Part shown: one piece after another, positions 2,332 through 17,219 of the stretch | Position numbering within the stretch: position 1 is the first letter of the stretch | How the letters are laid out: each line of letters begins with the position of its first letter | From: a virus | DNA: 21,696 nucleotides | Reading direction: 5' to 3' (one strand) | IMG/VR virus record: IMGVR_UViG_3300042731_004246 | Span: 1 to 21,696 of that record | The notes under the pieces: generated by a model | Told to the model about the DNA's origin: nothing | Databases searched by the model: none | What the model saw: the letters and a program-made list of their open reading frames with translations, nothing else | Translations under genes and position numbers: made by a program

Positions 2332-3615
2332 TCACGAGGCCGCGAAGTCGCTCACGGCAGTGATGTAGCCATGAGTGCGGGCGTGCCGCAGCTCCAGACC
2401 ACTCTTGGTCATGAACTCGTGGACGACCTTGTCCTCGCCGTTGCCCTGCCGCTCCCGGAGGAACCGGGTGTCCCGGTCCTTCAGGTAGCGGTACATGATG
2501 TTGCGGGTATCCAAGATAACCGCAGCGCTACGCCAGGACGGGTGCTCGGAGAACAGCGGGTGGTTGATCATCCGCAGCTCGCCCCATCCGTGAATCAGGG
2601 TACGAATCTGGAGACCGTAGGTCTTGTCCTTCGGCTCCAGGAAGATCTGACCAAGCTCTTCTGCATACTTGGTCATCACTCCAAGGAAGGTGGACCCGCA
2701 CAGCGCGATTTTGTTCTGGCTGCCACCGGGAACCGTGTAGATCGGCTCCAGGAAGGCCATGAACTCGTCGCGGGTGAGGGTGTTTGCGGTCGAGAGATCG
2801 AGCGTCCCGTCCAAGTAGTGGGTCGGCGCTTCGAGGTCGATCCAGAACTTGACGCCACCAGTGGTGCGCATGGCTTCGCCACCGGTAGAGCCGAGGACGT
2901 CGATGCGCTCACGAAGGCCCCACATGAAAGCCTTCTCCATTTCCATGGAGTGCATGACGGCGCAGTCGAACTTGGAGGTCTCGTTGATGTTGCCGGTGCG
3001 GTAGTAGGTCTGGGCCGCATCGTCGGTCAACGAGAGGCTGGTGCGGAACGTCTCGATGTAGTTCCACTTCTCGTGCGGTGAGTACATGACGGCAGACGGA
3101 TAGTCTGCGCCTTCCTCGTGAGCCGACCCGATGATGGTGATCTCGTCACCACCTCCGCTGAGATCCGACGCCTTGGCATCATCGCCACCGTAGGTGGACG
3201 AAGAGCCGACGTCACGGATCACAGTGAGGTTGGTATCGCTAGACACCTCGCTGACGTAGCAGACCTCACCACTGGAGGTCACTTGGATCAAGTGACCAAC
3301 CTTGAAGAACTTGGTGGGGGCCGTGTAATTGGTGTACGGAGCACCGGGAGTGGTGTCCAGGGTGAAGATGGTGTCATCGGCACCGGAACCACCCGATGTC
3401 GAAGCGAGCAGGTGGACCTGATCCGGCAGCCCCTGCTCGAAGATGTTGAACTTGGGATCGTCAGTCATGTTCGACTTGAGCATCCCCAAGATCATCATCA
3501 GGGGAGAAGGGCCTTCCGGGTACTCACGAAGGATCTTCTCCAAGAAATTAGTGGGACGCTCGTTGGCCGTAAACGACCCTGTTCCTCGCATCCCTGCGAT
3601 TGCTCTGTCAGCCAT
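2332..3615 (-). CDS. Major capsid protein, SU10-like (HK97-fold family)
   Basis: The 427-residue protein forms the icosahedral shell. The N-terminus (FLEKILREYPEG, then PLMMILGMLKSN and PKFNIFEQGLP) and the C-terminus (RDTRFLRERQGNG, KSGLELRHARTHG) have the pattern of SU10-type major capsid proteins. These include a short N-terminal arm, a beta-rich insertion with VTSSGEVCYVSEVSSDTNL at about 110-128, and a long helical central part. Length (about 400-430) fits the family. It directly follows the scaffold gene, as in most tailed phages. The start ATG 3615 has a GAAGGGAT ribosome site that lies in the loop of a small inverted repeat. No N-terminal prohead-protease cleavage signature was recognised. 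Confidence 0.9.
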   Translation of the reverse strand: MADRAIAGMRGTGSFTANERPTNFLEKILREYPEGPSPLMMILGMLKSNMTDDPKFNIFEQGLPDQVHLLASTSGGSGADDTIFTLDTTPGAPYTNYTAPTKFFKVGHLIQVTSSGEVCYVSEVSSDTNLTVIRDVGSSSTYGGDDAKASDLSGGGDEITIIGSAHEEGADYPSAVMYSPHEKWNYIETFRTSLSLTDDAAQTYYRTGNINETSKFDCAVMHSMEMEKAFMWGLRERIDVLGSTGGEAMRTTGGVKFWIDLEAPTHYLDGTLDLSTANTLTRDEFMAFLEPIYTVPGGSQNKIALCGSTFLGVMTKYAEELGQIFLEPKDKTYGLQIRTLIHGWGELRMINHPLFSEHPSWRSAAVILDTRNIMYRYLKDRDTRFLRERQGNGEDKVVHEFMTKSGLELRHARTHGYITAVSDFAAS

Positions 3616-4922: not shown

Positions 4923-5299
4923 ATCGCCGCCCTAGTACGCCATGTTTGGTTCCTTGATAGTTCCTCGGCTCTTTTCTTGGCCTCCTCCCCCCGGTCCCAC
5001 TCATCCTGTGCCATCCTGAGAAGGACCTTCTTCTCCTCGTACTGGGCGACCCAGTGCTCTGGCATCCGTAGCTCGTTGGCCAGAATAGATGCCTGGGCCA
5101 CGATCGCAACGGCCTTGTGCGGCTCATCTCCGATCTTGAATCTTGACAAGAGATCGGTCATCTGCCGGATAAGCTGTGCCTTCTTGTGCTCCCATTCCGG
5201 GTCCTCGCCGGACACGCGCTCCTTGGCCTTGACGTAGACTGGCTCAAGCATGGCCATCTCGGTCTGGATTTTCTCAATGCGGTCTGCGAGTGTGTTCAT
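4919..5299 (-). CDS. Small helical (coiled-coil) protein between portal and scaffold
   Basis: The protein has 126 residues, almost entirely charged and helical (MNTLADRIEKIQTEMAMLEP at the N-terminus, YEEKKVLLRMAQDEWDRGEE near the end). It has no membrane segment or cysteine. Its ATG overlaps the portal stop as ATGA, so translation is probably coupled to portal synthesis. A small coiled-coil protein at this site could be a portal- or scaffold-associated assembly factor, but no family was recognised and the role remains open. Confidence 0.7.
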   Translation of the reverse strand: MNTLADRIEKIQTEMAMLEPVYVKAKERVSGEDPEWEHKKAQLIRQMTDLLSRFKIGDEPHKAVAIVAQASILANELRMPEHWVAQYEEKKVLLRMAQDEWDRGEEAKKRAEELSRNQTWRTRAAI

Positions 5300-7398
5300 G
5301 CTCTAGCCGCCATTCCTGCCGGTTGACCAGAGATGGGTACCACGTTCCCGGCCTGCGCCTGCTCGGCAACCATCTGGTCCGGCTGCACGTTCACGTCCAT
5401 GAAATACCTGTCGATGTCTGTCACGCCCATGTTCTGTGCGATGGTGCGGAAAATCTCCCTGAAGTCCAGCATCTTCCCGTCTGGTCCGGGCTGCTGCAGT
5501 TGTGGCAACTGCCCGGCTCCGGCCAGCAGGTTCGACCACGTCGCCGCTGAGCGCCCCGGGTCTTGAGGCATGATGCCGCTGATCGGCTCGTAGTCGAAGT
5601 CCCCCTGGATGTCCGCCAAGGTCGCAAAGATGTTGTCGATCCCCAGGTCGCGCTGGAACTCGCCAACGATGCGGTAGTACCGCTCGATCCTGGTGAACTG
5701 CTGGCGGTTGGAAATCGCCCGCCTGATCATCGGCTGGACCCCCATCTCGTCCATCAGGCGGGTCATGATGGCGATCCTGTCCGTGGCCTTTGCCGTGATG
5801 GTCTGCACCTCTGTTGCGCTGCGCTCAGTGGGCGTTGGGATGCCACTGAGGGGGTCGTTAGCGCCCGTGAGGAGCTGCAGGAACTGATAGGTCTTCTCCA
5901 TCGCCGGGATGTAGGTAGACCCCGTAACGTCTGTCATGGGCATCTGGAAGAGGAACTGCCGGATGTCCTGGATCTCTCCACTGAGCATCATCTCGACAGC
6001 CTCGTTGGTGAGCGTCACGTTCTCACCAGGACCGCCGTAGTCGAACTCCACCTGGTTGATGAACCGTGGTGTGTAGACCCATCGGTTGTTCATGGTTGCG
6101 GTGATGTTCTCGATGTGGCTGTTGTAGAGCCAGCTAATCACCCGCTGCAGCCCCTCGATCAGCTCTCCCTGCCCAGGAGAGCTTGAGGCGTGGAAGTCTG
6201 GGTCGGTTTCAACGCCAGCGTAGGGGAATTCCTGGTGCCAGTTCCTGAAGTCATGGGCGCGAATGAGCCTCTGGTCCTCAACCCAGGTGAAAATGTACTT
6301 CTCTGGGTGCTCTGAGCCGCTGATCTCCCAGTCCCTCGGGATCAGCTCCACCACCATGGTCTCGGCAGTGTAGAAGTCACCGTACTTCTCGTTGAGCCGG
6401 TGCCCTCCCTCCATCGGTTGGGTGTCGTTGATGCCGTCGTACCCCTTGTACTCCCACTGCTTGGTGTGGCCGACCTTGATGTCCTTGAGCTTGTCGATGT
6501 TGAAGTAGGGGCCTGATGGCATCTGGCGTTTGGCGAACGAGTTGTATGAGCAGTCGAACTGGTGCCCAAAGAACTCGCCCTCCTGGAGGTTGGCCAGCGG
6601 GACCCTCGGGTCCTTCCTGACACGGTAGGGGTCGATCGTGCGCCAGCGGTTGTACTCGCGCTTTACTGACCACTCCTTGACTGGGGTGAAAGCCAGGGGA
6701 CCGAGAACAGCTCGCAATAACTCCGGTGGTACTCCAGGCACTTCGAGCGGGACGTGCTTCCAGGTGTTGCCCTCTTCGATCTCCCAGGAGTCGTAGACCA
6801 CGCCCATCCCTGTTTGGAGGGCGTCCAGGAAGAGTGAGTACAGAACGGAGTACGCCTGAGTCTGTCGTGAGTCATAGGACAGCATGACCTCCAGGAGCTT
6901 GGCGTTGATCTTGTCCTCTGGGCCGATGCCGAAGAGTTGGAACATCGGCTTCCTGGCGCTGTAGATCGACAGGATCTGGGCCAGCAAGACATGGAGCGTG
7001 GCATAGGTCGCTGGCACCACCACGCTGCGCTGGAAGGGCATCTCAACAGCGTTGTAATCGCTGGTCTTGTCCCCCTTCCTGGCCTTGCGGTTGAGGTTCA
7101 CGTACATATTCATGTGCTCGCGGACGCGGTCCCACTCTTCGTAGCGGTGCTCGATGTTGCGCACGGCATAATCTCTGCGCCGCTTGAGCCTCTCGATGAT
7201 CTTCTTCTCTAACTCCTCGTTCGCCATGAGCCGCTCGTGCAGCGGCCTTTCGGGCATACTCTCAATTTTGACCTCGCCGTCGCCGCCGTCTGGCATCATC
7301 CCGGGCATGCGCTGCGCTGGTTCGACAAGGTCACTCATCGCGGAAGCGCCCGTCATCGCTTCCTGCCTTCCCTGCATTGGTGGTCTGATGATGGCCAT
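5296..7398 (-). CDS. Portal protein
   Basis: The 700-residue protein would form the dodecameric ring at one capsid vertex through which DNA is packaged and ejected. The N-terminal third contains the long helices and the MYVNLNRKARKGDKTSDYNA and ATYATLHVLLAQILSIYSAR segments typical of podoviral portals. The middle has WRTIDPYRVRKDPRVPLANL (wing region) and aromatic-rich beta strands. The part around DPLSGIPTPTERSATEVQ to RLMDEMGVQPMIRRAI matches the stem and tunnel-loop region. The length suits large P22- or SU10-like portals. It sits directly after the terminase nuclease and before the scaffold, the canonical order. The start ATG 7398 has an AGGAGG site that overlaps the stop of the nuclease gene. 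Confidence 0.92.
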   Translation of the reverse strand: MAIIRPPMQGRQEAMTGASAMSDLVEPAQRMPGMMPDGGDGEVKIESMPERPLHERLMANEELEKKIIERLKRRRDYAVRNIEHRYEEWDRVREHMNMYVNLNRKARKGDKTSDYNAVEMPFQRSVVVPATYATLHVLLAQILSIYSARKPMFQLFGIGPEDKINAKLLEVMLSYDSRQTQAYSVLYSLFLDALQTGMGVVYDSWEIEEGNTWKHVPLEVPGVPPELLRAVLGPLAFTPVKEWSVKREYNRWRTIDPYRVRKDPRVPLANLQEGEFFGHQFDCSYNSFAKRQMPSGPYFNIDKLKDIKVGHTKQWEYKGYDGINDTQPMEGGHRLNEKYGDFYTAETMVVELIPRDWEISGSEHPEKYIFTWVEDQRLIRAHDFRNWHQEFPYAGVETDPDFHASSSPGQGELIEGLQRVISWLYNSHIENITATMNNRWVYTPRFINQVEFDYGGPGENVTLTNEAVEMMLSGEIQDIRQFLFQMPMTDVTGSTYIPAMEKTYQFLQLLTGANDPLSGIPTPTERSATEVQTITAKATDRIAIMTRLMDEMGVQPMIRRAISNRQQFTRIERYYRIVGEFQRDLGIDNIFATLADIQGDFDYEPISGIMPQDPGRSAATWSNLLAGAGQLPQLQQPGPDGKMLDFREIFRTIAQNMGVTDIDRYFMDVNVQPDQMVAEQAQAGNVVPISGQPAGMAARA

Positions 7399-7406
7399 CT
7401 AGCCTC

Positions 7407-8318
7407 CTACTTGAACGCGCCGATGAGCCGCCGCTTCTTGCGCCGCTTCTTGGTCAGCGCCAGCTTGCGCTCGTGTTCTTTTTCTGCCTCGGTCTTCCGA
7501 GACAATTCCTTACGTGTCGGCCATTCACGGTTGACGAGAGCCATCGCCGCGTCTGCCATGTGTGTTCGCCAGAAGTAGGGTCGGTCTTTCTTCCGCTCCT
7601 TCTTGATCGACCTCTTCGTCCCATCTTCCCACACCACCTCTACCATGTCGCGGACCAGGTGCGGGCAATTCCGGGGGTGGATTTTGATCCTCGGGTTGCC
7701 GAACTTGTCCTTCAGCCGAAGGTTCATGGCGGCTACCGAGTTCACATTAGAGGGATTCTTGGTCGGCACTTTCATCCTGATGTCGAACGGCGCACGCATG
7801 AACTGGATTTTCATCGTGTCATAGTTGGATCTCTGGTCGCTGTTGGAGCTGCGGCCCCTCCCGCTCGCGTCACCATAGATCCACAGTTCGCCGTAGAAGT
7901 CGCCGTACCTGTTGAGAAACTCCTCACACGCCCGGTTCACAGACCCCTCTCTAAGCCAGATTTCTTCGAGGAACCAAAGCTCTTCGTCCTTCTGAATCTG
8001 CGCGATGGCCCACGCCATGGGCTCGACGTTGAAGTCACAGCAAAGACAGAGAGGAAGCTCTGGGTTGAATTCTAATGTGTCGCTGGTGTTGGCCAGCAGG
8101 GAGAAGTTCTCGAAGCACCGTACTCCGCTGACGGAGGAGAAGTTGATCTCCATCTCCTTTTCCCAGTCGTCAGCATCGCCACGCGCCCTGGCTGCCACGG
8201 CCCACTCGGGAGACTTCGCCGGGTCGGCTGAGTAGTGGACAAACGCCAAGGCCCAGCCGCCCGGATGCCTGACGACCGGGACGTACTCATGGCCGGAGTA
8301 GGTCTTCTCTTCTTCCAT
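7407..8318 (-). CDS. Terminase large subunit, nuclease domain as a separate protein (TerL C-terminal half)
   Basis: The 303-residue protein is the RNase H-fold endonuclease that cuts concatemeric DNA during packaging. Three acidic motifs are visible: D95 in CCDFNVEPMAW, D150 in IYGDASGRGRS, and D256 in THMADAAMALV, as in TerL C-terminal domains. Residues 21-35 (GWALAFVHYSADPAK) and 52-60 (WEKEMEINF) correspond to the segment that normally links the ATPase and nuclease domains. There is no Walker A or B motif. The C-terminal 45 residues are very basic. The ATPase half lies 4.5 kb upstream as its own gene. The start overlaps the previous stop (TGATG) with a weak ribosome site, which suggests coupled translation. 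Both halves look intact, so a two-chain terminase is more likely than a pseudogene. Confidence 0.87.
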   Translation of the reverse strand: MEEEKTYSGHEYVPVVRHPGGWALAFVHYSADPAKSPEWAVAARARGDADDWEKEMEINFSSVSGVRCFENFSLLANTSDTLEFNPELPLCLCCDFNVEPMAWAIAQIQKDEELWFLEEIWLREGSVNRACEEFLNRYGDFYGELWIYGDASGRGRSSNSDQRSNYDTMKIQFMRAPFDIRMKVPTKNPSNVNSVAAMNLRLKDKFGNPRIKIHPRNCPHLVRDMVEVVWEDGTKRSIKKERKKDRPYFWRTHMADAAMALVNREWPTRKELSRKTEAEKEHERKLALTKKRRKKRRLIGAFK

Positions 8319-8890
8319 CAGCTCGTGAATGACCTGAACGCCTTCGCCACATCATGAGGCGTTGCATCTGGGTGATTGTTGTACCAGTTGTCGAGTAGCG
8401 TGCCATCCACGCCCCGCGATACTAATGCCGCACGCAGGGTCGCCCAGCGGACAGGCAGCATCGGAACGTCCATGTCGTAGGGGTCCAGTCCTGCTGGCAG
8501 CGGATCACCATTGAGATCGGGGTTGAACACGCCGAGGACGAAGTGCTTCGCAGCCGCGTCGATGTCAGCAAGCACACTCGCCGCACTCACCTGGAGATCG
8601 ACAAGACACGCATCCGGCACCACTCCCCACTCTGGGGTGACCTCGTCGGAGGCGCTGACCACGCCGTCCTGCGTGATCGTGGCGGTGAAGCGGTCCACCG
8701 TCATGACGAGCAGCGGCCAACCTGTCGCGGGATCTCTCCCCCACGGCTTACGGAGATCGTTCAGCGTGTCATGCGGCTGGTCGGGGCCGATCACCAGGGG
8801 GAAGTCTTCCATCACGGACGAGTGGCCCACACCTTCCTCGAAGTCTGCCTTGGAAAGTACGAACGCTCGAAATTTACCAAATCCCGCCAT
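8318..8890 (-). CDS. Unknown protein within the split-terminase insert
   Basis: The 190-residue protein was not recognised. The N-terminus (MAGFGKFRAFVLSKADFEEG) is mixed. The middle alternates hydrophobic and polar residues (WPLLVMTVDRFTATITQDG) and looks beta-rich. The end is helical (HDVAKAFRSFTS). There is no signal peptide or metal motif. ATG 8890 is preceded by AGGAGG, which overlaps the upstream stop codon. It is the last of five genes separating the two terminase halves, next to two probable surface proteins, so a virion or adsorption-related role is possible but unproven. Confidence 0.7.
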   Translation of the reverse strand: MAGFGKFRAFVLSKADFEEGVGHSSVMEDFPLVIGPDQPHDTLNDLRKPWGRDPATGWPLLVMTVDRFTATITQDGVVSASDEVTPEWGVVPDACLVDLQVSAASVLADIDAAAKHFVLGVFNPDLNGDPLPAGLDPYDMDVPMLPVRWATLRAALVSRGVDGTLLDNWYNNHPDATPHDVAKAFRSFTS

Positions 8891-8898
8891 GGCGCCTC

Positions 8899-10461
8899 CT
8901 ATTTCAGATCAGCCGGGAGTGATGGGTTGCGGGGGAAGAGGGCAACGTAGTCCATCGTTGCAGGACCACCTTCGAGAGTGGCAACCTTGAATCCAGATTC
9001 AGATGTAAATACTCCGCCAGAGGTAGAACCGACAGAAGTGCCGTTTACAAACAATTCGATATTTGCCCCGTCTGCGGTAACAACCAAATCATCACCATTT
9101 GATACGCTTCCAGCACCACCGCTTATGAGAGATGACGCCGATCCACTAACAACTTTCCAGATCCAAACAGCACCGGAGGTTGTCGTTTGCAGCATCATGT
9201 AGTTTGTCGCATCTTGTATTCTGAAATGCAACCTTGTTCCGAGAATACTTGAAGATCCAAGATAGTGATTCTTTACCACCATCACGAAATCAGACTCGCA
9301 GTCAGCAGTATCATCCACCTGCGGGCACACCACGCGATCCGTGGCGATGCCGAGCTTCGGGTAGGGGTGAGTGGTAAGGACGATGTCGTTGGTGGCGAGG
9401 GTTGTTACAAGGTGGCCGTTCGCCGTAGTAAGCGAAGAATCTATCGTCAAAGTGCTGCCCTGTTTTACCCCGTCAATAAACCACTGAAAATCAGTCCCGT
9501 TTATCACAATGTCGATTGTGTAAGAGGTTGCATCCGCGAGTGTCGGGCCAGTGGCGAGAGTTGACTCAGAGCCGCCAACGTTTTGTAGAATTCTCGTATT
9601 TCTCGCCGGAAGGTTCTGGACGCCAACAAAGTTCTGATTATTCAAATATCTGCCGTAGACGTAAACAACTGTCCCGTCCTCAACGGTGTAGGAATAGTGG
9701 ATGTGGCAATTAGTTTCGCAGTCAAAATCTGAACTCTCAGGACTCGTCGCCGTGTCCGTTACCTCAGTGAAGTCCTCTCCATACTTGGAAGAGTAGTTTG
9801 CGAGGTTGCACTCAACGAGGTCGTAGATCTTGTGCCCGGTTCCACCCCATCCACCAACCGCGACTTTAGTACCGTAAGTTAGGTCCCTTTCTTTGACGTA
9901 GGCCAACTTGCCTGAGCGGACATGGAACACATTGTTCTGCATGAAAATAATGCCGTACCACTCAGGTTCAGTGGGGGCCGAAAAAGTACCTAAGAGATAA
10001 ATCACCTGACTACTGGATCTTATGGTTCGCCCCCCGGCCCAACAGTTAATCGTTGGCCTGGTTCCGACAAGGTTTGTTTGTCCGAACTCCATAGAAACAG
10101 AGTCTGTTGGATTTGGAAGTGCTCTCACGAAAATTGCATCACCGATCCCGCTGAACTGTCTGGCCTGACCAAACCCACTAGCATTATCTAATGCGCCGCC
10201 ACTGTTTGTGATGTACCCATCCGTGATTGCGAATATGCTTCCGGCATCGACAACTGTAGTTGTCCCCGGCCCCGGCTCCGCAGCACGCGGGCTTGCCACG
10301 GGGGAGGCGTCTGGAGTGAGAAATGAATCCCAATAAAGGGCGAGACGTTCCAGCCATGACTTCTTCTTCCTGCCTTGCCCGAAGAACTCTAGCTGCTCAA
10401 GCTCATCCCTGGTTGGCATCCACCCGCGCTTGCCGGGGAAGAGAGGGACCGGATTACCCAT
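8899..10461 (-). CDS. Probable virion surface protein with concanavalin A/LamG-like beta domains
   Basis: The protein has 520 residues. Residues 1-60 are basic and amphipathic (KKKSWLERLALYWDSF) and may attach the protein to the particle. The rest is Ser-, Thr- and Gly-rich with many short beta strands. Two regions have the jelly-roll pattern: about 260-370 (DATSYTIDIVINGTDFQWFI, DGVKQGSTLTI) and about 410-515 (LHFRIQDATNYMMLQTTTSG, NIELFVNGTSVGS). These read like LamG or concanavalin A-like lectin modules, which bind glycans in phage fibres and decoration proteins. The codons are clearly AT-richer than in the neighbours: 56 of 120 bases are G or C in 9001-9120. Acquisition from elsewhere is likely. 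It has a strong AGGAGG start signal. Glycan binding is inference from fold pattern. Confidence 0.72.
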   Translation of the reverse strand: MGNPVPLFPGKRGWMPTRDELEQLEFFGQGRKKKSWLERLALYWDSFLTPDASPVASPRAAEPGPGTTTVVDAGSIFAITDGYITNSGGALDNASGFGQARQFSGIGDAIFVRALPNPTDSVSMEFGQTNLVGTRPTINCWAGGRTIRSSSQVIYLLGTFSAPTEPEWYGIIFMQNNVFHVRSGKLAYVKERDLTYGTKVAVGGWGGTGHKIYDLVECNLANYSSKYGEDFTEVTDTATSPESSDFDCETNCHIHYSYTVEDGTVVYVYGRYLNNQNFVGVQNLPARNTRILQNVGGSESTLATGPTLADATSYTIDIVINGTDFQWFIDGVKQGSTLTIDSSLTTANGHLVTTLATNDIVLTTHPYPKLGIATDRVVCPQVDDTADCESDFVMVVKNHYLGSSSILGTRLHFRIQDATNYMMLQTTTSGAVWIWKVVSGSASSLISGGAGSVSNGDDLVVTADGANIELFVNGTSVGSTSGGVFTSESGFKVATLEGGPATMDYVALFPRNPSLPADLK

Positions 10462-10470
10462 GCGTTCCTC

Positions 10471-10674
10471 CTAGAGATAGCGGCTGAGAACCCGCTCCAC
10501 GAACTTCATGCACTCTTCCATGCTCTCGAAGAAGTACGCTGGGCCGTACGGCAGCTCGACTGTGTAGCCCTTGCCGTTGCCCTCCTGACGGACAGTGACG
10601 ATGAAGTCCGGGACGGGGGCTGGCGGTCCTGCGAGCCCTGCTGAGGTTGGCGCGTCTGAAGTGATTGCCGACAT
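10471..10674 (-). CDS. Small protein of unknown function
   Basis: This is a 67-residue protein. ATG 10674 was chosen because AAGGAGG lies 5 bases upstream. A longer form from ATG 10704 would overlap the previous stop as ATGA and cannot be excluded. The first 25 residues are Ala-, Pro- and Ser-rich and look disordered. The rest (FIVTVRQEGNGKGYTVELPY, FFESMEECMKFVERVLS) looks like a small alpha/beta domain. It lies between two large probable surface proteins and may be an accessory or chaperone to them, which is inference from position. Confidence 0.6.
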   Translation of the reverse strand: MSAITSDAPTSAGLAGPPAPVPDFIVTVRQEGNGKGYTVELPYGPAYFFESMEECMKFVERVLSRYL

Positions 10675-10700
10675 GGTTTCCTCCTTATTTAGTTTGAGCG

Positions 10701-12326
10701 TCATACTTTAGCTCCCATTGGATAGTCGTAACCATCACCGGAAACTGAGATTTGAGCTATGTTGACGTAGGCCACGTCCGTGTCAGCCGAGTTGAACTCG
10801 AAAAAGAAGTGCGACATCGGGTCGCCCTGCCCGGTCCACCCAACAGGTGGGTAGAGGGCTGGCATTTGGGCTGGATACCTGACGCCGTCCTGTTTTCTGC
10901 GGAGCCCACACTGAATCCTACCTTGTTCCCCGTAGCCAGATTGGGTGTATAAGGAATCTAGCTCGAAGATGTAGAGCATCCATCTGTTCCAGTCTGCTCT
11001 CATCGGGGAAGTAGAAGTCCAGTTCTGGTCATCGAAGGAGGTTTCGCTGGTGGTCCCTGTCACGTCATAAATCCCAGCAGCCGCTGAGACCCACTCGTAA
11101 CTCCCGACCTGGTTTCGTCCGAACCGCATCCCGATGCGGCGCTTCGGGGGCCAATCAGCGCTCTCCATGATCCCGCCCCGAAGATATGCCGCCGCCAGTC
11201 CGCTGTAAGAAACGTAGGCCAGCATCTCGATGCGCAGACAGCCTGTGGCCGGGGTGGCCAGAGGAAAGTAAAACCGCAGCGGGCTCGCCGCTGTCGATGA
11301 AGAACGCAGCACATGAGAGAATCCTGGCGGCGCGTAACTATTTGAATCGGATGGGATGTTCTGCACCGTCCACGACCCGGAGCTGGCAGGGACAGTCACC
11401 TTGGACGATCCACTCCCAGTGCTCTCATCGTCGAAGCTGATTACTTTTTGTGGCTCGCTCGTCGGCCACTCGTGCTCTGGTAGACCAACGTACAATCTCC
11501 CCAGATAATAGCTCCCGGAAGAGGCCGCATACGGAGCAAAACCACCAAGGATGTACGTGAGCTGTGGAGCTGAGGGCCAGTCCGCTCGCGGGAAGGCCCA
11601 GCTTCTCCATCCGGCATAGGCGTTATTCCACATGAACTGGTTTCTTCGGAACACGCGCAGCCAGAGCAGCTCGTTGACCGGGTCGAGCTTTCCCTGCAGT
11701 GACCACCACTGACCAGCCGAAATAGAGGAGAACCCGGTGCCGGACAAGGAGGTGGACGTGGCTGACCCATTCACTCGCAAGCCGGATTGGAGAGCGCGGT
11801 TATAGTGGTCTAATGCGCCGTAGGTCTCGGTGCCGCTCGCAAAATCGGTGTCATCACTTACCCGCCCGGCGTAACCACACGAGTTGGGAACTGAGGAACA
11901 GTTGTAAATCACCTCCCACCACAGCTCTGTGCCGCCCGAGGGAACCGAAAAATCAGCCGCTAAATATGCGTTGGTCGGGTAGCTGTATCTGATTCGGCAG
12001 CATCTCGTAAGTGAGCCTGGGTAGTAACCATCCGCACCCTCAACAATGATATTGAATATGCCGTCTTGATTCAGTGCGTCAGCAGCTATGCCGCTCACCT
12101 TGATGATGTCTTCGGGGAGGTTGTCGTAACCGGGGAGGTTCTCGGCTAGCTCATCGTCGGCAAACTCGCGGAGGTAGGGGAGGGTCGCCCCTCCACCATG
12201 ACGCTGCCTCCAGCCCTTCCTGGGCCTCTGAGCAAGCATGGCTATGCGTTCGAAGTCAGTCCTGCTGTACAGGTAGGAGTGTCTCCTGAACAACGGGAGA
12301 GCCCTCTCTGGGCGCTTTTTAGCCAC
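10701..12326 (-). CDS. Large probable virion surface protein (beta-rich, Ser/Tyr/Trp-rich)
   Basis: The protein has 541 residues from a GTG start at 12326; an in-frame ATG at 12242 is the alternative, and neither has a strong ribosome site. The N-terminal 45 residues are basic (RPRKGWRQRHGGG), as in the 520-residue neighbour, and may be an anchor. The remainder is rich in Ser, Gly, Tyr and Trp with repeated strand-like segments (GGTELWWEVIYNCSS, about 126-140; GCLRIEMLAYVSYSG, about 371-385; NRWMLYIFELDSL, about 444-456). These are consistent with one or two jelly-roll domains. No catalytic motif was recognised. With the 520-residue protein it forms a pair of accessory particle proteins inside the terminase split. 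A fibre, adhesin or glycan-binding role is possible. Confidence 0.68.
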   Translation of the reverse strand: MAKKRPERALPLFRRHSYLYSRTDFERIAMLAQRPRKGWRQRHGGGATLPYLREFADDELAENLPGYDNLPEDIIKVSGIAADALNQDGIFNIIVEGADGYYPGSLTRCCRIRYSYPTNAYLAADFSVPSGGTELWWEVIYNCSSVPNSCGYAGRVSDDTDFASGTETYGALDHYNRALQSGLRVNGSATSTSLSGTGFSSISAGQWWSLQGKLDPVNELLWLRVFRRNQFMWNNAYAGWRSWAFPRADWPSAPQLTYILGGFAPYAASSGSYYLGRLYVGLPEHEWPTSEPQKVISFDDESTGSGSSKVTVPASSGSWTVQNIPSDSNSYAPPGFSHVLRSSSTAASPLRFYFPLATPATGCLRIEMLAYVSYSGLAAAYLRGGIMESADWPPKRRIGMRFGRNQVGSYEWVSAAAGIYDVTGTTSETSFDDQNWTSTSPMRADWNRWMLYIFELDSLYTQSGYGEQGRIQCGLRRKQDGVRYPAQMPALYPPVGWTGQGDPMSHFFFEFNSADTDVAYVNIAQISVSGDGYDYPMGAKV

Positions 12327-12329
12327 AGA

Positions 12330-12800
12330 CTACTTGCCAGCGCCTGGTACTGGTTGGTTGCCACCCATGGCCTGCATCGGCTGAATCCCTCGAACAGGCT
12401 GCATGCTGCCAATCGCCTGCTGCCTCAACTGTGCTCCTTGCTGCTGCTGGACGCTTTGCATGGGAGCTGTCCTCATGAAGTCAGAAGCACCAGGAGCGAG
12501 GCCCCCTTGCTGCGAGACCCCCGGCAGGGTGCGTACCTTATCCAAACTCATGAAGTTAGAAGCGCCAGGAGGAGCGCTTCCCGGCTGCGAGGTCGCCCGC
12601 AGGGGGCTTATTTGGCCCCTCTGAGCACCGGGAGCGGCACCTGGCAACATGGCTGGCTGGCCAGAGGCCGGGGGCCGTCGCATGTTCGGCAACCCTCTGT
12701 TGTTCATGTTCTGCATCGGGTCTGCCATTTGAGGGTTAGCTGCCTGGCCCAGTTGACCCGCTGTAGTGGCTCCTGGTGCTGTTCCTTGTGCGGTTCCCAT
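12330..12800 (-). CDS. Gln/Pro/Gly/Met-rich low-complexity protein with an internal duplication
   Basis: The protein has 156 residues from ATG 12800, which overlaps the stop of the TerL ATPase gene (TAATG). The AAGGAGG site lies within the last codons of that gene, so translation of the two is probably coupled. The sequence is almost wholly Gln, Pro, Gly, Ala and Met and is likely disordered. Two related segments (GASNFM and GASDFM contexts) reflect an imperfect 58-bp duplication in the DNA. It has no membrane segment or catalytic motif. It is the first gene of the five-gene insert between the terminase halves. A virion-internal or assembly role is possible, with no family recognised. Confidence 0.65.
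   Translation of the reverse strand: MGTAQGTAPGATTAGQLGQAANPQMADPMQNMNNRGLPNMRRPPASGQPAMLPGAAPGAQRGQISPLRATSQPGSAPPGASNFMSLDKVRTLPGVSQQGGLAPGASDFMRTAPMQSVQQQQGAQLRQQAIGSMQPVRGIQPMQAMGGNQPVPGAGK
12472..12604. repeat. Imperfect 58-bp direct repeat, two copies 75 bp apart
   Basis: Copies at 12472-12529 and 12547-12604 both begin CTCATGAAGT and end GCAGGG, with most intervening bases alike (AGAAGC, CCAGGAG, CTGCGAG). Spacing of 75 bases keeps the reading frame of the low-complexity protein. The repeat reflects internal duplication in that gene and shows no sign of being a mobile-element end. Confidence 0.75.
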
Positions 12801-13516
12801 TATGCTACTAGCCTCCTTACGTCCTTGTAACTCCTGACACCGCAAGCATCAGCAAGCTCGGCCAGGATGCCGATCGGCCCATCGCTGGACGAAGCGAGGA
12901 CCAACTGTGCGCCATTCTGTACCATGGGGAGAGCGGCCCTGACAACTGCCGGGGCCTCTGCCTGAAACTCACACTCATCAACGAAGATCTTTGTGGCCGT
13001 GTACTGCCGAAGGACATCACCACCGCTGGCGAGCGCCCAAATGTAGGAGTCGTTTGGGTAGGTGATGTGACCGATCAGCCCGGTCTTTGTCTTCATCGTT
13101 TTAATTGGAAGGCGGAAGGCGGGGTCTCGAAGGTGCTCCTCGATGAATCTGCACCTCTTGTCCACAGCAAATGCTGATTTTTGCTCTGTCTCTGACATAT
13201 AGAAGATGGCGCTGTTGGGATGGTAGCGCGCATCGTGGACAAAGTAGGCTGACAGTAACCAAGAAACCATCATGCGGCGTGATTTGGGCACGCCCACCAG
13301 CGGCTCGTTTTGAAGCACGGCGAGGAGTTCGCGGAGATATTGGTGGTGACGGGGCCAGTTGTAAATTCTGTCCCGACTCTGCTCCGTGATGTGCTGAGAT
13401 TCGTCTACCGTGCGGACTTGTTGACAGAAAAATTTCCAGGGGTTGGCAGCGTATTCTTCGTCAAGCCTCTCCTTCTGGATCAGAAGGAGCGCCGCCTCTT
13501 CCCTGTCCGTTAGCAT
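12800..13516 (-). CDS. Terminase large subunit, ATPase domain as a separate protein (TerL N-terminal half)
   Basis: The 238-residue protein is the motor ATPase that pumps DNA into the prohead. Residues 75-85 (GVPKSRRMMVS) form the deviant Walker A loop seen in many terminases. IFVDE (177-181) is Walker B with its catalytic Glu, and LVLASSS (205-211) is the coupling motif III. NPWKFF and the NWPRHHQYLRELLAVLQ helix are typical of the N-terminal part. The frame stops 27 residues after motif III, just where the linker to the nuclease would begin, and that domain is encoded separately at 7407-8318. Its start overlaps the TerS stop (TAATG) and its stop overlaps the next start. This argues for an established gene arrangement and not a recent frameshift. 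Confidence 0.86.
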   Translation of the reverse strand: MLTDREEAALLLIQKERLDEEYAANPWKFFCQQVRTVDESQHITEQSRDRIYNWPRHHQYLRELLAVLQNEPLVGVPKSRRMMVSWLLSAYFVHDARYHPNSAIFYMSETEQKSAFAVDKRCRFIEEHLRDPAFRLPIKTMKTKTGLIGHITYPNDSYIWALASGGDVLRQYTATKIFVDECEFQAEAPAVVRAALPMVQNGAQLVLASSSDGPIGILAELADACGVRSYKDVRRLVA

Positions 13517-14208
13517 TAGTCGTCAGACTCCAGCAGGCTCTCGTACTGCTCAAGAGTGGCCCGGCGCTCTTCTGGACTCTGACTCAGCAACTCGATGATG
13601 CCGGGGGCGATCGTGAGCATCTTGTCCTTCTCGAACATGCCAAGGTGTCTGGCAATCTGCTCAAGGGCCTTGTCCTGGTCGCGCAGCTCGAACGAGATTT
13701 CGCCCGTGGCTCCGACCTTGAACTTCTTCATCAGGTGCAAGCGTCCGAGCCGCTCCGCCTTGGCAAGGTCCGGCATCACCATGCTGTAGATTGCTCCGGT
13801 GTTGGGGTCCTCGCGCTCTCTGACGGTCATGAAGTCCGTCATGTCGGCCTTGGCGATCTCACTCCACTCCGCGAGGATCTCGTCACTTGTCAGGGCCTTG
13901 GCCGCTATCCTGCGGCTCAGGATGTCTCTGATGGCTGGCTTCTTCAGGACCGATCTGCCGACCGTGCCATAGGCACCAGCGCTCAAGCCGCTGTAGTTTG
14001 CGGCCTCTGCTGCGCGACCGGCCCTGAACCCGTTGCTGAGGTAATACTCTATGAATAGAGCTTCCTGGAAGGTGATCTCACCGCCCCTGTACGCCTTGAT
14101 GGTAGGGTTGGTGGAGGCAACCAACTCGAAGACTTCGTCGTCAATCTCGCAGTTGATTGAGAGCGCCTTCAGGAGGTCTTGTACATCACGCTTCGAGCGT
14201 TCTGGCAT
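13516..14208 (-). CDS. Terminase small subunit
   Basis: The protein has 230 residues from ATG 14208, which has CAGGAGG five bases upstream; an ATG at 14226 would add six residues and lacks this site. Small terminase subunits bind the packaging site and recruit TerL. Residues about 50-100 (FQEALFIEYYLSNGFRAGRA, SAGAYGTVGRSVLKKPAIRD) show the helix-turn-helix and repeat-initiation pattern of the Terminase_2-type small subunits. ALTSDEILAEWSEIAKADM then follows as the usual helical core. It overlaps the TerL ATPase gene by one stop/start junction, the canonical order. The C-terminal helix (SPEERRATLEQYESLLESDD) is probably the TerL-contacting end. Confidence 0.8.
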   Translation of the reverse strand: MPERSKRDVQDLLKALSINCEIDDEVFELVASTNPTIKAYRGGEITFQEALFIEYYLSNGFRAGRAAEAANYSGLSAGAYGTVGRSVLKKPAIRDILSRRIAAKALTSDEILAEWSEIAKADMTDFMTVREREDPNTGAIYSMVMPDLAKAERLGRLHLMKKFKVGATGEISFELRDQDKALEQIARHLGMFEKDKMLTIAPGIIELLSQSPEERRATLEQYESLLESDD

Positions 14209-14224
14209 TTTGGCCTCCTGAAAC

Positions 14225-14254
14225 ATAGTAGGTCCAGGAGTTACGAGTTGTCAA
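14225..14254 (-). promoter_or_regulatory. Candidate promoter before the terminase-structural genes
   Basis: On the minus strand a perfect TTGACA (14249-14254) and TACTAT (14225-14230) are separated by 18 bases. Transcription from here would begin within about ten bases of the TerS ATG, leaving just the ribosome site as leader, so the fit is imperfect. The -35 box continues as TTGACAAC, a word that recurs near the initiator gene. Confidence 0.4.
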
Positions 14255-16869: not shown

Positions 16870-17076
16870 CTACCCCTCCTTGTACTTGGACTTCTTCCTG
16901 TCCAGTTTGCCCCGCAGCTTCGTGCCCAGATTGTCCTGGAGCACGGGAGCCGTTGGCATTTTTCTCGTCGGCCCCTCGCACTCCGGGCAGTCCAGGGGCT
17001 GGTCCCGAAACTCGACCGGCCTGATCCTCTCGAACCTGAGACCACACTTGCAACACTTATAATCGTAAAGGGGCAT
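16870..17076 (-). CDS. FmdB-type zinc-ribbon protein
   Basis: The protein has 68 residues from ATG 17076, with GGGAGG seven bases upstream. The N-terminus MPLYDYKCCKCGLRFERIRP is characteristic of the FmdB-type putative regulatory zinc ribbon. C8/C11 and C30/C33 (CPEC) supply the four zinc ligands. The C-terminal third is basic and Lys-rich (KLDRKKSKYKEG). It is the first gene of the leftward arm and would be made directly from the minus-strand promoter at 17123-17151. FmdB-like proteins are widespread in bacteria and phages, mostly without a known mechanism; a regulatory role is suggested by family and position. Confidence 0.82.
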   Translation of the reverse strand: MPLYDYKCCKCGLRFERIRPVEFRDQPLDCPECEGPTRKMPTAPVLQDNLGTKLRGKLDRKKSKYKEG

Positions 17077-17122
17077 CGGAACCTCCCTAAACAATATACG
17101 CCTACCGTCAAGCATCTCTGGT

Positions 17123-17151
17123 ATGGTACAGTACATTTCTTGACGTGTCAA
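17123..17151 (-). promoter_or_regulatory. Leftward sigma70-like promoter
   Basis: On the minus strand TTGACA (17146-17151) and TACCAT (17123-17128) are separated by 17 bases. The predicted start lies about 40 bases before the FmdB-like ATG. The dyad TTGAC-N2-GTCAA covers the -35 box, so a bound protein would block RNA polymerase. It would feed the whole leftward arm from FmdB through the helicase. Confidence 0.7.
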
Positions 17152-17190
17152 ATTTTCCGAACAACATCTCGGGAACCTTAGCTTAGGGAC

Positions 17191-17219
17191 TTGACACGTC
17201 AAGAATTATACTGTATCAT
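17191..17219 (+). promoter_or_regulatory. Rightward sigma70-like promoter
   Basis: TTGACA (17191-17196) and TATCAT (17214-17219) are separated by 17 bases, with transcription expected to start near 17226, just before the AAAGGAGG site of the first rightward gene. The -35 box is embedded in a TTGAC-N2-GTCAA dyad identical in arms to that of the leftward promoter, so both directions are probably controlled by the same protein. Confidence 0.75.

What the first reader, a model, noticed from the sequence alone, without database searches (positions are those of the whole stretch)
7407..13516. Large terminase split into separate ATPase and nuclease genes with five genes between
The ATPase ORF (12800-13516) has Walker A, Walker B and motif III and ends 27 residues after motif III. 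The nuclease ORF (7407-8318) starts in the interdomain linker and keeps all three catalytic Asp (95, 150, 256). Each is fused to its neighbours by TAATG or TGATG overlaps, so neither looks like debris. TerL is normally one protein. Splits are known from introns, inteins or homing genes, but here the insert contains none of these. It holds five ordinary genes, two of them large probable surface proteins. The motor would be assembled from two chains, or the nuclease may act independently.
Basis: partly seen in the sequence, partly recalled or inferred. Interest (0 to 1): 0.8.

Follow-up and report, generated by a model that had tools for sequence, protein, structure and literature searches.

The report
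Phage DNA-packaging motor encoded in pieces
In this uncultivated phage, and in many relatives found here, the DNA-packaging enzyme that is almost always one protein is made as two separate proteins, an ATP-driven 'engine' and a 'transmission plus cutter', with other genes lodged between them; this makes it possible to test whether the engine has to be covalently tied to the part that moves and cuts the DNA.

Summary
ATPase 12800-13516(-) and nuclease 7407-8318(-) are complete, conserved halves of one large terminase (TerL), 4.48 kb apart, in one co-directional operon between TerS and portal. It is not a chimera, debris or an intron. The same split occurs in at least seven other clade-mates; two arrangements recur in separate metagenomes. 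No second TerL was found on 62-65 kb relatives. dN/dS is 0.05-0.22 for both chains and catalytic residues are kept. A wider census gave 93 non-redundant split and 26 fused members of the same TerL superfamily, broken in one variable linker just after motif III. The tree needs at least 9-10 fused/split switches. 33 splits are directly adjacent, 60 carry inserts (0.1-4.5 kb); this window has the largest. Here the insert is one conserved Gly/Pro-rich gene plus four variable genes. By T4/D6E anatomy the cut separates the ATPase core (engine) from lid + hinge + nuclease (transmission, wheel). Best reading: a bipartite motor whose chains join non-covalently. A different split is already known (Arthrobacter cluster AY: consecutive genes, cut after the lid), so this is a new variant, not a new kind. 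Two-chain function is inferred; no complex was modelled or assayed.

The parts
13516..14226 (-). Terminase small subunit (TerS), stop overlaps the ATPase start (TAATG)
   Evidence: Pfam Terminase_2 E 5.5e-15; junction read
12800..13516 (-). TerL chain 1: ATPase core ('engine'), 238 aa, ends 27 aa after motif III
   Evidence: T4 gp17 by profile (E 4e-7) and by fold (2o0j E 4e-11); AlphaFold2 pLDDT 87
12330..12800 (-). Gly/Pro/Gln-rich low-complexity protein, 156 aa, overlaps ATPase stop (TAATG); conserved next to the ATPase in clade A, motif GQLGQxANPxxxDPxQNxNxxGxP and GGGK-type C-terminus
   Evidence: alignment A3; HMM hits in most clade A loci
10701..12326 (-). Variable cargo gene 1, 541 aa, no significant Pfam or PHROG match
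10471..10704 (-). Variable cargo gene 2, 77 aa
8899..10461 (-). Variable cargo gene 3, 520 aa, weak LamG/ConA-like domain
   Evidence: Pfam Laminin_G_3 E 1.7e-4, below its curated cut-off
8318..8890 (-). Variable cargo gene 4, 190 aa, stop overlaps nuclease start (TGATG)
7407..8318 (-). TerL chain 2: lid/linker + RNase H-fold nuclease, 303 aa, D95/E119/D150/D256
   Evidence: fold match to D6E TerL (5oee E 2.9e-7); AlphaFold2 pLDDT 80, poor in residues 1-62
5296..7398 (-). Portal protein
   Evidence: Pfam SU10_portal E 2.8e-21
2332..3615 (-). Major capsid protein (operon context)
   Evidence: Pfam SU10_MCP E 1.5e-25

Best explanation
This is a natural two-chain large terminase. Chain 1 is the P-loop ATPase core; chain 2 is the lid ('transmission'), hinge and RNase H nuclease. 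Both are made from one late operon by coupled translation and most likely assemble non-covalently at the portal into one motor that does what a one-chain TerL does. The split lies at a variable linker between the motif III helix and the first lid strand. In this superfamily the break has come and gone repeatedly. Where the two genes are separate, the junction tolerates further genes; here a conserved Gly/Pro-rich gene and four variable genes. Shown: the two intact halves, their conservation, co-inheritance, purifying selection, recurrent split/fusion at one site, and no other TerL found on long relatives. Inferred: physical assembly, and ATPase-lid coupling in trans.
For: Same order TerS-ATPase-...-nuclease-portal in L002, L004, L005, L008, and the same split in L016, L018, L019. 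93 split and 26 fused non-redundant loci; gap from overlap to 4.5 kb. Fused and split forms align across the junction. Tree needs 10 fused/split changes, 7 forced by starred branches; 9 and 6 without long branches. Walker A K and R in 92/93, catalytic E 93/93, D95 and D150 93/93 of split forms. ATPase and nuclease distances correlate, r 0.82 in split and 0.91 in fused, 0/2000 permutations. dN/dS 0.05-0.22 in both genes. Folds match T4 gp17 ATPase and D6E TerL. No other TerL found in 62-65 kb relatives. Chain 2 residues 1-62 are conserved yet poorly predicted alone, as expected if they fold against chain 1. That the lid couples ATPase to nuclease: PMC9958956, PMC5727402.
Against: No complex was modelled and no biochemistry exists. 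In T4, separate ATPase and nuclease domains without the hinge keep their activities but lose translocation (PMC9958956), so a split motor must have compensated; in the natural split the hinge stays with the nuclease. D256 is aligned in only 78/93 split forms. All relatives are metagenome assemblies or fragments; no cultured phage with this split was found (six isolates inspected are intact).
Confidence: 0.8

Rival explanations
1. Functional uncoupling: the ATPase (perhaps with the Gly/Pro-rich protein) is the whole translocating motor, and the lid-nuclease chain acts separately as a headful or concatemer-cutting endonuclease.
For: Separate genes allow it; phi29-type motors translocate with a vestigial nuclease domain (title of PMC7672431, listed; otherwise own knowledge).
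Against: Chain 2 keeps the lid, which a stand-alone nuclease would not need, with H28, D32, K35 near-invariant; chain 1 lacks most of the lid; halves co-inherit; fused sister lineages interleave with split ones.
Confidence: 0.12
2. The halves are joined after transcription or translation (undetected intron, trans-splicing, split intein, ribosome bypass), so the mature protein is one chain.
For: terL split by group I introns with proven splicing is known (Jug phages, PMC12363816); inteins in TerL are known (Mic1, PMC7156551).
Against: No intron family in the window (E up to 1) or in 32 insert-bearing relatives; every gene has its own start and stop, with TAATG/TGATG overlaps at three junctions; 27 + about 12 flanking residues leave no room for a split intein; many relatives simply overlap by a few bases.
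Confidence: 0.04
3. Recent insertion or assembly chimera: five genes inserted into a working TerL in this phage only.
For: The gap here is the largest of the series (4.5 kb).
Against: Same split in many independent contigs, with identical arrangements recovered in separate metagenomes (L003/L004, L002/L006); purifying selection.
Confidence: 0.01
4. The halves are decaying remnants and another terminase does the packaging.
For: The window is a 21.7 kb fragment, so a distant TerL cannot be excluded in this very genome.
Against: No other TerL hit in 62.9, 65.1 and 64.5 kb relatives (three families plus own profile); low dN/dS.
Confidence: 0.03

Closest known systems
Arthrobacter cluster AY phages, e.g. 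BillyTP (PP978841; PMC11920828)
   Same: ATPase and nuclease of TerL in two separate genes between TerS and portal
   Different: Genes consecutive and overlapping; ATPase chain 359 aa, continuing about 110 aa past the motif III read by eye (so the lid is included), nuclease 198 aa; not matched by the profiles of this superfamily; only consecutive genes reported
Phage T4 gp17 / Terminase_6N large terminase
   Same: ATPase core fold and motifs; best PDB match for chain 1
   Different: One polypeptide; covalent hinge essential for translocation in T4 (PMC9958956)
Phage D6E large terminase
   Same: Best fold match for chain 2; lid + linker + RNase H nuclease
   Different: One polypeptide
Fused members of the same superfamily (L130, L131, L133, L140, L211 and others, about 500-580 aa)
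   Same: Homologous over both halves, same linker position
   Different: Single ORF
Intron/intein-interrupted terL (Jug phages PMC12363816; Mic1 PMC7156551)
   Same: terL reading frame interrupted on the genome
   Different: Interrupted by self-splicing elements and rejoined; none found here

Membership tests
Large terminase (TerL) | P-loop ATPase with Walker A (Lys + Arg), Walker B D-E and motif III | tested here: met
Large terminase (TerL) | RNase H-fold nuclease with acidic triad | tested here: met
   D256 aligned in 78/93
Large terminase (TerL) | Lid/linker subdomain between the two | tested here: inconclusive
   Conserved lid-like segment heads chain 2 and aligns with fused forms, but low AlphaFold2 confidence
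Large terminase (TerL) | Locus between TerS and portal | tested here: met
Large terminase (TerL) | Both domains in one polypeptide | tested here: not met
   so filed as a split variant of TerL, not as an ordinary TerL
Large terminase (TerL) | ATP-driven DNA translocation and cutting | not testable with these tools
   needs biochemistry
Cluster AY-type split TerL | ATPase and nuclease genes consecutive | tested here: not met
   five genes between; but met in 33 relatives
Cluster AY-type split TerL | Break after the lid, at the nuclease start | tested here: not met
   break 27 aa after motif III here versus about 110 aa in BillyTP
Intron-split terL | Group I/II intron at the junction | tested here: not met
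   Rfam
Intein/split-intein TerL | Intein halves flanking the junction | tested here: not met
   no extra sequence of intein size between motif III helix and stop, or before the lid strand

The most novel reading that the evidence does not exclude
The motor is a true hetero-oligomer in which the ATPase ring (engine) and the lid-hinge-nuclease ring (transmission, wheel) are separate subunits coupled only by contacts, possibly with unequal or exchangeable stoichiometry, and the conserved Gly/Pro-rich protein encoded between them is a third motor component that tethers them.
Probability: 0.15. Interest if true: 0.85.

Novelty: new variant of a known kind. Interest (0 to 1): 0.66.

Why it matters
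TerL is treated as a universal one-gene marker and as a one-chain machine whose lid and hinge transmit force. Here is a TerL superfamily, widespread in metagenomes, whose gene has broken and rejoined several times at the engine/transmission boundary. If the chains work together, covalent linkage of engine and transmission is dispensable, which bears on packaging models (PMC9958956, PMC5727402). It also offers separable subunits for biochemistry, and warns that TerL searches and taxonomies will miss or miscount these phages: Pfam finds neither half in the window.

Tried and rejected
Pfam scan of either half: no match. PF03237 and PF17289 on own and related contigs: none. ATPase profile in bacterial genomes: none; nuclease profile gave only distant MAG relatives, so no host was assigned. 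PDB sequence search with the nuclease profile gave only a chance hit. Common origin of the window's cargo with that of L008 or L016: only weak N-terminal similarity (E 0.05-0.6). Chimera and recent insertion rejected.

Full report
CHECK. The window is an IMG/VR virus record of 21.7 kb, classed linear. The late operon runs on the minus strand: TerS, ATPase, five genes, nuclease, portal..., capsid protein. PHROGs names each half TerL; Pfam recognises neither.

NOT AN ARTEFACT. Single-protein searches found close relatives on other contigs. Mapping the window's proteins on them gave TerS-ATPase-gap-nuclease-(gap)-portal in L002, L004, L005 and L008, and the same break in the shorter L003 and L006. 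Identical halves and order came from separate metagenomes (L003/L004, L002/L006). L016, L018 and L019 add three more. dN/dS for close pairs is 0.05-0.22 for both genes. Long relatives of 62.9, 65.1 and 64.5 kb show no second TerL: Terminase_6N and 6C found nothing, phrog_2 hit only the split locus, and the ATPase profile gave a single place per contig. These contigs are not known to be complete genomes.

WHAT LIES BETWEEN. In clade A the gene after the ATPase is a Gly/Pro/Gln-rich low-complexity protein with a conserved N-terminal motif and a GGGK-like end. In L002, L003/L004 and L005 nothing else separates the halves. In L008 two more genes lie there (a carboxypeptidase-regulatory-like domain and a 320-aa protein); in the window four (541, 77, 520, 190 aa). 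So 'five ordinary genes' is one conserved gene plus four variable ones. Across relatives the gap genes include glycosyltransferases, an FkbM methyltransferase, LamG, metallophosphoesterases, an endolysin-like gene and two HNH/EndoVII-like genes. No intron was found.

CENSUS AND EVOLUTION. Alignment searches reached a second clade in which the genes overlap directly (L022, L096) or have short inserts, and then a broad superfamily. After removing near-copies: 93 split and 26 fused members; 33 split ones have less than 60 nt from ATPase stop to nuclease domain, 60 have inserts; the window is the extreme at 4.5 kb. The proportion is not unbiased, because the query alignments were made of split members. 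Junctions align: the break lies in a variable linker between the helix after motif III and the strand '...NPxxGFxVxxLHYxADPxK'. The ATPase + nuclease tree needs 10 fused/split changes (7 forced by branches with at least 95% SH-aLRT support); 9 and 6 without long-branch rows. The root, and hence whether fission or fusion is more frequent, is not determined.

FOLD AND MECHANISM. AlphaFold2 gives a confident ATPase core (pLDDT 87) whose best solved match is T4 gp17, and a confident nuclease domain with best matches in D6E TerL. Residues 1-62 of chain 2 are conserved but poorly predicted alone. By T4 anatomy (PMC9958956) the ATPase core is the engine, subdomain II the transmission, the nuclease domain the wheel. 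The break leaves the engine on chain 1 and lid + hinge + wheel on chain 2. In T4, removing the hinge abolishes translocation while each domain stays active; the natural split keeps the hinge with the nuclease and breaks the engine/lid connection instead. I infer that the lid packs on the ATPase in trans. The near-invariant Walker A arginine (92/93), whose partner lies in the lid in other TerLs (PMC7617512; PMC5727402), would then find its partner on the other chain. That step is not shown.

COMPARISON. Split TerL as such is known: cluster AY Arthrobacter phages encode ATPase and nuclease in consecutive genes (PMC11920828). There the ATPase chain continues about 110 aa beyond motif III, so the lid stays with the ATPase (motif read by eye), and the proteins are not matched by the profiles used here. 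Six isolate relatives of the superfamily inspected here are all intact single ORFs of roughly 470-530 aa. I found no paper describing this break, its recurrence or genes lodged between the halves, within an open-access library only.

VERDICT. Observation confirmed; interpretation partly supported. A new variant of a known kind, with a well-supported evolutionary pattern and an untested but specific mechanical prediction.

Noticed in passing
window 12330-12800; L002 9410-9976, L004 8806-9402, L005 1618-2457, L008 10714-11226: A Gly/Pro/Gln-rich low-complexity protein with a conserved N-terminal motif follows the ATPase in clade A; function unknown.
   Followed up: partly
window 10701-12326 and 8899-10461; L008 11623-12585: The different cargo proteins begin with a weakly similar basic N-terminus (such as PLFPGKRGWMPTRDELEQL in the 520-aa protein), perhaps a docking peptide; similarity is only E 0.05-0.6.
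   Followed up: partly
L168, L182, L247, L253: The gap between TerL halves in some relatives holds glycosyltransferase- or sugar-nucleotide-type genes, as if the junction were a landing site for accessory genes.
   Followed up: partly
L100 1957-2391; L127 5367-6014: HNH/EndoVII-like proteins seem to be the gap genes in these two relatives, judged from their Cys-rich start and the pooled PHROG hits of the gap genes.
   Followed up: partly
L127 1141-1195 (-): Type-P5 twister ribozyme match well above the Rfam gathering score in a phage contig, outside the TerL gap.
   Followed up: no
L099 5765-6614: The nuclease half is broken into two overlapping ORFs in this contig, either a frameshift error or real decay.
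   Followed up: no
window 16870-17202 (-): Small CxxC zinc-ribbon protein (MPLYDYKCCKCG...) resembling FmdB-type regulators, judged by eye.
   Followed up: no
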